Shown here piece after piece: positions 32,831 through 58,160 of a stretch of DNA of 64,000 nucleotides; within the stretch, counting starts at the first letter, position 1; every line of letters begins with the position of its first letter. The position numbers and the translations under genes are program-made. Source of the stretch: Dactylococcopsis salina PCC 8305 (GTDB taxonomy: Bacteria > Cyanobacteriota > Cyanobacteriia > Cyanobacteriales > Rubidibacteraceae); NCBI RefSeq assembly GCF_000317615.1, contig NC_019780.1, positions 3,245,840-3,309,839 of the forward strand. The letters run 5' to 3'. Below the pieces are notes generated by a model. It searched no databases. It saw nothing but the letters and a program-made list of their open reading frames with translations, and was not told the DNA's origin.

Positions 32831-32960
32831 TTTTAGCCTTGACCGACGCTTGCGGTCAGTTATACAATCTCCAACAAGGCAAATTTTCTAGTTTTTGCGC
32901 TTGTAATTTGATTACTTCTGTCGGGTAGGTTAGGGAGATTACTCTCCCCTTCCCCCCTCA

Positions 32961-32994
32961 GAACCGTGCGTGCGACTTTTACCGCACACGGCTC
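32961..32994 (-). ncRNA. Group II intron domain V
   Basis: A 34-base hairpin, the catalytic core of the ribozyme: GAGCCGTGTGCGG on the 5' side, a short AAAA-type loop, and CGCACGCACGGTTC on the 3' side. The AGC-type catalytic triad and base-paired ends fit the family. Confidence 0.9.
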
Positions 32995-33007
32995 AAGCAA
33001 ACACGGG

Positions 33008-57317: not shown

Positions 57318-57381
57318 TTTGCTGAGTTCGCGCTACAAACCGATTTTTTGGTCGAGTTAAACGTTAATTTTACAATAGACA

Positions 57382-57453
57382 AAGTAGGTTGGGTAGAGAC
57401 GTTCCATGGAACGTCTCTACGCCATGGCACGTCTCCACGCGTAACCCAACACC
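57382..57453. repeat. Nested element with two CCATGG palindromes
   Basis: GTAGGTTGGGTAGAGACG and CGTAACCCAACACC enclose GACGTTCCATGGAACGTC and then CCATGGCACGTCTCC. It is the longest nested copy in the window. Confidence 0.85.
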
Positions 57454-57587
57454 AATTATAAGGAATTACCTGAGCCTGCTCTTAAACCTGTTGAATGTTA
57501 AGATACAATCTGACTAGAGCCTGCTTTTTAAGTTCTTTTGTCACTGTAAACGTGGGACTAACCCAATCACTGTACATTAATTGACAT

Positions 57588-57845
57588 TCGTGTTGATTGT
57601 GTTCGGTTAATCCAGTCTAAGTCTCTTGGCAGACTACGTTATTTAGGTCAGGACACCTTTAGGTGCAAGCCAGCCTTCTGCTCTGTCGCTGATAGTTAAA
57701 CAGGTTCAAGTGATTCAAGGATACCAGTGCTATTAGTGTAAAAAGCCTAGATAACATTGACGAGGCACACTTAACTCCGTGCAGGGAAGTATCCCATTAT
57801 GTGGGAACTGAAGAGAGACTGCACCTCTCTCTCTTTATCTATAAA
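57588..57845 (+). ncRNA. Structured non-coding RNA candidate (6S-like?)
   Basis: The segment has at least five hairpins on the plus strand: AGTCT / AGACT (about 57613-57637), CACCT-TT-AGGTG (57655-57666), GCAC / GTGC (about 57765-57782), TCCCA-TTATG-TGGGA (57790-57804) and GAGAG / CTCTC followed by TCTTTAT (57812-57840), the last like a terminator. TTGACA at 57581 could be a -35 box. The size, terminal hairpin and GGTTCAAG ... TTCAAGGATACCAG part recall 6S RNA, which binds RNA polymerase. Family assignment is a guess; the structured nature and lack of coding sequence are what is seen. Confidence 0.45.
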
Positions 57846-57900
57846 AGTCAATTAATGTTCAGTAAATAACCTATTAGAAGTTAGCAGATTCCGATCGAGT

Positions 57901-58140
57901 ATGGATGCGTACAAGAAATATTTGACCATTTCAGATCAAAAACAGATAGTATTGTCGAATCTACCATTCTCTCCAGGACAACAGGTAGAGATCATCATAA
58001 TTGCTGAAAATCCTCCAACCGAGAACTTAACGAGTCGTTTCAAAAAGTTACTGAAAGAAACCCAAGCCCTTCACGAGGAATCCCCTTTAAGTGAAGAGGA
58101 TATCCAAACTGAAATTGATGCTTATCGTCGGGGTGAATGA
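57901..58140 (+). CDS. Antitoxin-like protein, partner toxin lost
   Basis: 79 residues. It begins MDAYKKYLTISDQKQIVLSN with an AbrB-like short beta region (LPFSPGQQVEIIIIAEN) and a helical, acidic C-terminus (EEDIQTEIDAYRRGE). Such proteins precede PIN-domain toxins in many cyanobacteria. Its stop overlaps the start of the next frame (ATGA, 58137-58140), which is only a stub of the toxin. Confidence 0.75.
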   Translation: MDAYKKYLTISDQKQIVLSNLPFSPGQQVEIIIIAENPPTENLTSRFKKLLKETQALHEESPLSEEDIQTEIDAYRRGE

Positions 58141-58160
58141 AGGTCATTATTGATACATAG
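58137..58160 (+). pseudogene. PIN-domain toxin stub
   Basis: The frame gives MKVIIDT and a TAG at 58158-58160. MKVIIDTN is the usual start of VapC-type PIN toxins and contains the first catalytic Asp. Nothing of the rest of the toxin is found downstream up to the clpB stop; a short frame (TVPKRCGRIEEQLIKAVANN, about 58206-58290) could be a transposase scrap. The toxin has been lost. Confidence 0.7.

What the first reader, a model, noticed from the sequence alone, without database searches (positions are those of the whole stretch)
57588..57845. Hairpin-rich non-coding RNA candidate upstream of a decayed toxin-antitoxin pair
Five clear hairpins and a terminator-like end in about 260 bases without coding potential. 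There are promoter-like boxes just upstream. It could be 6S RNA, another housekeeping RNA, or a novel small RNA.
Basis: partly seen in the sequence, partly recalled or inferred. Interest (0 to 1): 0.55.

Follow-up and report, generated by a model that had tools for sequence, protein, structure and literature searches.

The report
Standalone IscB guide RNA with cap
The hairpin-rich stretch is a small repeated element carrying the guide RNA of a Cas9-like nuclease without the nuclease gene, and in place of that gene it has a conserved folded RNA tail that none of the nuclease-bearing relatives examined has.

Summary
The structured RNA is real, but not 6S or a housekeeping RNA. Window 57556-57775 is a HEARO (omega) RNA, the guide RNA of IscB nucleases (RF02033, 106.5 bits, cut-off 83). 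It lies in a repeated element of about 332 bp (57556-57887) without iscB. The genome has 15 HEARO matches (11 above cut-off): 4 next to a long iscB, 1 beside an iscB fragment, 10 alone; a 95%-identical copy carries iscB. Directly after the guide RNA lies a ~61-nt "cap" (57776-57836): hairpin UCC[GUGCAG]GGA, a middle hairpin, and a terminal hairpin whose loop CUGCAC pairs with the first loop. In 17 diverse caps this loop-loop helix is fully paired, with double changes at 4 of 6 pairs. A structure scan found it after 18 of 73 solo HEAROs and 0 of 66 with IscB homology. No Rfam family reaches its cut-off on it. Standalone omega RNAs are known; I found no description of this cap in the paper searches I ran. 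Most likely it completes and stabilises a guide RNA used in trans by IscB encoded elsewhere; that function is inferred, and a decayed relic is the main rival.

The parts
57536..57555 (+). predicted guide (spacer): host DNA immediately 5' of the element (role inferred)
   Evidence: HEARO model position 1 is 57556; flanks differ between copies; the 20-nt pattern with up to 3 mismatches has 1 match in the genome, itself
57556..57887 (+). whole repeated element, family A, about 332 bp, no iscB
   Evidence: alignment of 5 solo copies and 1 iscB-bearing copy; the right junction meets sequence resembling the 5' flank of the antitoxin homologue of a congener (by eye)
57556..57775 (+). HEARO / omega RNA scaffold
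   Evidence: RF02033, 106.5 bits, full model 1-211
57776..57836 (+). 'cap': 3' RNA module that takes the place of iscB
   Evidence: covariance models R1/R2; covariation
57776..57787 (+). cap hairpin P-a, UCC[GUGCAG]GGA; loop 57779-57784 is kissing strand 1
57790..57807 (+). cap hairpin P-b (middle hairpin)
57810..57836 (+). cap hairpin P-c, terminal and terminator-like; loop strand CUGCAC 57819-57824 is kissing strand 2, followed by CUC 57825-57827
57838..57887 (+). right end of the element, shared with the iscB-bearing copy
   Evidence: 83% match to genome 2524261-2524313, where the iscB-bearing copy ends
57901..58140 (+). antitoxin-like ORF, 79 aa, starting after a 13-nt gap; neighbour, not part of the element
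   Evidence: no Pfam family above cut-off
58137..58160 (+). remnant of the PIN toxin gene (7 codons, then stop); neighbour
   Evidence: by comparison with the intact pair of L107

Best explanation
A standalone omega-RNA element: a non-autonomous relative of IscB (HEARO) elements that lacks iscB and keeps the left end, the guide-RNA scaffold and the right end, with a kissing-loop cap where iscB would start. Proposed working: transcription from the host side produces an RNA whose 5' part is the local flank (guide) and whose 3' part is the scaffold. The cap, whose first hairpin takes the place of the scaffold's last hairpin (which in iscB copies carries the GGAG ribosome site of iscB), folds back by loop-loop pairing, ends the transcript and protects its 3' end. 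IscB made from another locus loads the RNA and cuts alleles lacking the element, so the copy is kept or copied back. Shown: identity, repeat nature, absence of iscB, restriction of the cap to solo copies in the set examined, its covariation, and an IscB gene with its domains in the same genome. Inferred: transcription, loading in trans, cleavage, and the 3'-end role of the cap.
For: HEARO match over the full model. Six near copies in the genome, itself included; the copy at 2525678-2525897 (95% identical) is followed by a 457-aa IscB with RRXRR and HNH domains that matches solved IscB chains. The 9 solo copies of families A and B without iscB remains carry the cap; the iscB-bearing copy of each family lacks it. 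Between one family A and one family B solo copy the cap is 86% identical, the scaffold 60% and the 50 nt after the cap 45%. A model built from these 9 finds the cap in 8 of 60 genomes searched, own included, starting at the base after HEARO in 6 of 8 loci scanned. Loop-loop helix paired in 17 of 17 diverse caps, 4 of 6 pairs doubly changed; whole structure 95.3% paired against at most 53.9% when slid. 18 of 73 solo against 0 of 66 loci with IscB homology, 1 of 2780 shuffles. 7 of the 8 cap-bearing genomes hold RRXRR (IscB-type) proteins, against 34 of all 60. Passage in PMC9581776: standalone omega RNAs can function with IscB.
Against: No expression data, and no promoter-like site upstream. 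Selection on the window family's scaffold is weakly supported: against four other solo copies 20 changed pairs are kept, 12 broken, 7 restored, and 7 of 65 consensus pairs are not standard in the window itself. No empty site was found in five congeners. The one Y1 transposase found shares only chance-length matches with the elements, so current mobility is doubtful. Right flanks of family A show no constant ATGA/GTGA, the motif seen at many other elements. G033 has a capped HEARO but no RRXRR match. A family B copy with an iscB deletion has no cap, so loss of iscB does not require one, and 55 of the 73 solo HEAROs scanned did not give this cap (the scan misses a few that other calls show). In Microcoleus-type genomes and a Prochloron record the cap stands without a HEARO match, which a pure guide-RNA role does not predict.
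Confidence: 0.66

Rival explanations
1. A dead relic: an internally deleted IscB element, not transcribed to any effect; the cap is merely part of a formerly mobile MITE-like repeat.
For: A real internally deleted copy with an iscB remnant exists (2826863-2827119); no cognate transposase found; the window copy sits beside decayed genes; scaffold selection weak.
Against: The cap covaries in sequences from 16 genomes and is more conserved than the scaffold between families A and B; plain decay would not give the same covarying module only in solo copies.
Confidence: 0.2
2. A cis-acting 5' leader: the element lands in front of genes and the cap controls (or insulates) translation or termination of the downstream gene.
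For: 43 of 73 solo elements are followed by an (A/G)TGA start codon of an ORF of at least 80 aa at +95 to +290 (43 of 149 such sites, background 48 of 1089), 27 of the 43 with a ribosome-site-like motif just before it; the cap is kept upstream of a PadR-type gene in 5 genomes of one genus without a HEARO match (Pfam run on one of the proteins).
Against: IscB-bearing elements without a cap show similar placement (16 of 36), so it looks like a target or survival property; in the window the gene is an orphaned antitoxin.
Confidence: 0.1
3. The cap acts as DNA: hairpins in single strands recognised by the transposase.
For: IS200/IS605 transposases recognise end hairpins (recalled).
Against: The iscB-bearing copy with the same right end lacks the cap, and the cap lies inside the ends. 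Covariation alone does not tell folded RNA from folded single-stranded DNA.
Confidence: 0.03
4. 6S RNA or another known housekeeping RNA.
For: Hairpin-rich, cyanobacterial setting (reader).
Against: No such Rfam match.
Confidence: 0.01

Closest known systems
HEARO RNA / IscB omega RNA (Rfam RF02033)
   Same: Full-length scaffold match, 5' flank in the guide position, an iscB-bearing sister copy in the genome.
   Different: No iscB here; a cap in its place that was found in 0 of 66 HEARO loci with IscB homology.
Standalone omega RNAs reported with IscB (Altae-Tran et al. 2021, recalled; mentioned in a passage of PMC9581776)
   Same: Guide-RNA loci separate from the nuclease gene.
   Different: I know of no described 3' kissing-loop module on them; the primary paper is not held, so this comparison is incomplete.
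Adaptor and nexus pseudoknots of IsrB omega RNA (passages of PMC9581776)
   Same: Loop-mediated pairing in an omega RNA.
   Different: Those lie within the scaffold; this one lies beyond position 211 of the HEARO model.
MITE-like non-autonomous insertion sequences (general knowledge)
   Same: Short, no ORF, shares both ends with a gene-bearing copy.
   Different: Carries a guide-RNA scaffold and a covarying RNA module.

Membership tests
HEARO / omega RNA (RF02033) | covariance-model score above the curated cut-off | tested here: met
   106.5 bits against 83
HEARO / omega RNA (RF02033) | HNH endonuclease (IscB) ORF directly downstream | tested here: not met
   absent in this copy; present in the 95% identical copy at 2525678-2525897. 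So the RNA is a HEARO RNA, but this is not a complete HEARO/IscB locus
HEARO / omega RNA (RF02033) | binds IscB and guides DNA cleavage by its 5' segment | not testable with these tools
   needs biochemistry
Standalone omega RNA | scaffold without nuclease gene, nuclease gene elsewhere in the genome | tested here: met
   9 RRXRR matches above cut-off (two of them pieces of one gene), one protein checked for HNH
Standalone omega RNA | works in trans | not testable with these tools
   needs expression and cleavage assays
IscB/IS200-IS605-type element | shared left and right ends with an iscB-bearing copy | tested here: met
IscB/IS200-IS605-type element | cognate Y1 transposase in the genome | tested here: inconclusive
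   one Y1 transposase, beside a TnpB-like ORF (by eye), only 10-13-base matches to the elements
IscB/IS200-IS605-type element | ATGA/GTGA at the right junction (recalled from Weinberg 2009; compare the TTGA target motif in a passage of PMC9581776) | tested here: inconclusive
   seen at many relatives; not constant in family A flanks
6S RNA | match to a 6S family in Rfam | tested here: not met

The most novel reading that the evidence does not exclude
IscB-less HEARO elements in cyanobacteria are not debris but a distinct class of guide-RNA genes: their guides are set by where they land, and each carries one of several dedicated 3' RNA modules in place of iscB, the kissing-loop cap being one. 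The modules make the RNA a self-sufficient trans-acting guide, giving one genome a dispersed, renewable set of guides for shared IscB enzymes; in some lineages the cap has been taken over by the host as a leader of a regulatory gene.
Probability: 0.25. Interest if true: 0.85.

Novelty: new variant of a known kind. Interest (0 to 1): 0.6.

Why it matters
If the cap works as proposed, nuclease-less IscB elements become a testable class of natural trans guides, and the cap a natural 3' module for omega RNAs, useful for understanding how relatives of Cas9 spread guides and perhaps for stabilising engineered omega RNAs. Even as a relic, it gives a signature that separates some solo HEAROs from complete loci and that the Rfam HEARO model, which stops just before it, does not cover.

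Tried and rejected
6S or another housekeeping RNA: not supported by Rfam. Opposite strand as the RNA: z 0.71, and the HEARO match is on +. Empty insertion site in the five congeners: joined flanks gave only separate pieces. Other targets of the predicted guide in the genome, up to 3 mismatches: none. The genome's Y1 transposase as the cognate one: only 10-13-base matches. A known RNA in the cap: only HEARO (and, in L074, a riboswitch elsewhere) reaches a cut-off in the cap-bearing loci scanned. The Streptomyces hit of the pattern scan (L223) was set aside: no HEARO, terminal stem not paired by eye.

Rows dropped: one search lost 2 of 28 caps to its motif search; one search took 46 caps, lost 1 (L066), and did not include two partial matches (L071, L083) or matches without a fetched locus; one search left out 5 of 144 loci with under 85 nt downstream. 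The remnant copy 2826863 counts with the IscB group and with the solo group. Eight of the 18 caps are own-genome copies from which the structure was derived. Its shuffles keep base content only, not dinucleotides. Registers were chosen by the script for best pairing, so the MAFFT alignments (counted in 31, 44, 75) are the main covariation evidence; the brackets were placed by me. The one-to-one swap control gave 75.5% paired cells (maximum 81.2%) against 95.1% observed.

Known limits: the phylum scan scored only 13 candidates per genome and found 5 of the 9 caps of the home genome, so 12 of 386 genomes is a lower bound. The 100 fetched HEARO regions are part of the rows printed, whose list is itself cut; I took them from the top, leaving out rows at contig ends, rows already held and lower rows. 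The pattern covers only one sequence type of the cap.

Literature: Altae-Tran 2021 and Weinberg 2009 are not held; statements about them are recalled. Seen: passages of PMC9755519, PMC8987985, PMC9581776, PMC13180657; for all other papers search listings only. The listings of paper searches showed no title or abstract start describing the cap; their full texts were not read.

Full report
WHAT IS THERE. The stretch lies on the + strand of a single contig of 3,781,008 bases. Rfam identifies 57556-57775 as HEARO RNA (RF02033), full model, 106.5 bits against a cut-off of 83; no other family reaches its cut-off there. HEARO is the RNA now called omega RNA, the guide RNA of IscB nucleases (passages of PMC9755519).

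IT IS A REPEATED ELEMENT WITHOUT ITS NUCLEASE. A 401-base query finds five further near copies in the same genome at 86-98% identity, besides four weaker ones at 71-76%. Alignment sets the borders at about 57556 and 57887. One near copy (HEARO at 2525678-2525897, 95%) continues into a long IscB ORF and ends with the same right end at 2524261-2524313. That IscB has RRXRR and HNH domains and matches solved IscB chains, best E 4.9e-38. Of the 15 HEARO matches in the genome, 11 above cut-off, 4 have a long IscB ORF directly downstream, 1 (2826863) has an iscB remnant and 10 have none.

THE CAP. Directly after position 211 of the HEARO model 9 solo copies (5 of family A, 4 of family B) share about 60 bases that the iscB-bearing copy of each family lacks, as does the family B remnant 2826863. 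In the window (57776-57836) these form a 3-bp hairpin with loop GUGCAG, a middle hairpin, and a 9-bp terminal hairpin with loop CUGCACCUC. The two loops are complementary over 6 bases, a kissing-loop pairing. The three constant differences between families A and B inside the helices (alignment columns 3-10, 7-46, 39-57) are each compensated; one cell of 138 is unpaired. The first cap hairpin stands where iscB-bearing copies have their last scaffold hairpin, whose 3' strand holds the GGAG ahead of the iscB start (by eye).

DISTRIBUTION. A covariance model from the 9 (R1) finds 35 matches in 8 of 60 genomes, the 9 of the home genome included (two matches, in G001 and G004, are partial). In 8 of those loci scanned with Rfam, HEARO ends at the base before the cap in 6; L074 and L070 had no HEARO above cut-off. 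A second model from distant caps (R2) finds it in 12 of 386 genomes of the phylum, a lower bound. A pattern scan of 84,980 species genomes gave 21 stretches, 20 of them in cyanobacterial records, 12 of these in one genome; the single Streptomyces hit looks like chance. Of 46 caps taken together 45 could be fitted, 31 distinct, from 16 genomes.

COVARIATION. On a plain MAFFT alignment of 17 diverse caps the proposed pairs are 95.3% standard, against 36-54% when the partner is slid by 1 to 3 columns; 16 of 19 pairs show changes on both sides; no shuffle of 500 reaches the observed number of doubly changed cells (81 against a mean of 25) or covariation score. The outermost terminal pair is unpaired in 9 of 17. 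The loop-loop helix is paired in all 17, with double changes at 4 of 6 pairs: GUGCAG/CUGCAC, GUGUAG/CUACAC, AUGCAG/CUGCAU, GUACAG/CUGUAC, GAACAG/CUGUUC, GAAUAG/CUAUUC. In the larger set four G013 copies have a mismatch in this helix, one of which (L209) fits poorly. Sequences are related, so counts are not independent events, but several lineages carry different loop pairs.

ONLY ON SOLO COPIES, IN THE SET EXAMINED. I classified 144 HEARO loci (100 fetched best-per-genome loci, 15 own) by IscB homology downstream. A structure scan of the 139 with enough sequence finds the cap after 18 of 73 solo HEAROs (8 of them own-genome copies) and 0 of 66 with IscB homology, in 1 of 2780 shuffles and 0 of 1654 control windows. 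R2 gives 9 clear matches among the 100 fetched regions, all at solo loci (two of them training loci), plus 2 weak ones with E 0.63. The other solo HEAROs have different tails, at least two of them shared between genomes of different families; in 14 such loci scanned only HEARO and one tRNA reached a cut-off.

HOW IT MOST LIKELY WORKS. Shown: guide-RNA scaffold, host flank in guide position, no nuclease gene, a nuclease gene with its domains elsewhere, and a conserved 3' module in place of the gene. Inferred: the RNA is transcribed from the host side, the cap closes and protects its 3' end, and IscB made elsewhere loads it in trans and cuts alleles lacking the element. The passage that standalone omega RNAs can function with IscB (PMC9581776) makes the trans step plausible; a passage that even small truncations of a hairpin of another omega RNA lowered activity (PMC13180657, passage seen in part) makes a role for the 3' end plausible. 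Direct support for function of this copy is lacking: no promoter-like site, weak evidence for selection on the scaffold (20 changed pairs kept, 12 broken, 7 restored against four solo copies), no transposase with matching ends.

AGAINST, AND LOOSE ENDS. Many solo elements are followed at once by a start codon: 43 of 73 have an (A/G)TGA start of an ORF of at least 80 aa at +95 to +290 (43 of 149 such sites; background 48 of 1089, 4.4%). The background includes coding sequence, so the enrichment over intergenic sites alone is smaller, and a few of the 43 are not exactly at the element end. IscB-bearing elements show the same (16 of 36), so this reflects target choice or survival rather than the cap. 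In five genomes of one genus, and in a Microcoleus record, the cap and right end persist in front of a PadR-type gene with no HEARO match, and in a Prochloron record the cap stands without a HEARO match above cut-off. This fits a second, cis-acting life of the cap and keeps the leader rival open. Family A flanks lack a constant ATGA/GTGA.

VERDICT. The identity (solo HEARO element) is secure. The cap as a real structured module of solo HEAROs is well supported. Its function is a reasoned guess. A new variant of a known kind; I could not read the two primary papers, so an earlier mention of such tails cannot be excluded.

Noticed in passing
L123, L143, L151, L046, L052, L208, L212 (downstream of HEARO): A second conserved tail on solo HEAROs (CCCGAAAGGGAGGCUC..UAUGCGUACAGGGUUG..GGUAAUUGUCCCGUYGAAAGUGCA..ACAAAAGUACAC), aligned from 4 genomes; no Rfam family above cut-off.
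   Followed up: partly
L140, L174, L175, L177, L198, L043, L185 (downstream of HEARO): A third tail from 5 genomes: two neighbouring hairpins with nearly the same loop, CAACCAUA, on differing stems (pairing by eye).
   Followed up: partly
L158, L171, L172, L189, L191, L196, L202: A further tail type, seen in one genome (G039), with a possible long-range pairing CUACCGA/UCGGUAG (by eye).
   Followed up: no
L099-L103, L220, L228: Cap plus right end kept upstream of a PadR-type regulator gene in Microcoleus-type genomes without a HEARO match; possible host take-over as a leader. L220 may be the same genome as L101.
   Followed up: partly
relatives' HEARO elements (L114-L213 and others): Right ends of HEARO elements often sit at (A/G)TGA start codons of the next gene, with a ribosome-site-like GGAG/GAGG inside the element end.
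   Followed up: partly
window 57381-57488: Part of a small dispersed repeat around the palindrome GTAGAGACGTTCCATGGAACGTCTCTAC; dozens of partial matches in the genome and some in congeners.
   Followed up: no
window 32920-32996, - strand: Group II intron domain (RF00029, 66.5 bits).
   Followed up: no
L074 1208-1275: A glutamine riboswitch lies about 225 bases upstream of a cap, on the other strand.
   Followed up: no
G000:C1, IscB gene next to HEARO 2525678-2525897: The family A IscB carries an extra stretch of roughly 25-30 residues after the N-terminal domain compared with its family B relative (by eye).
   Followed up: no
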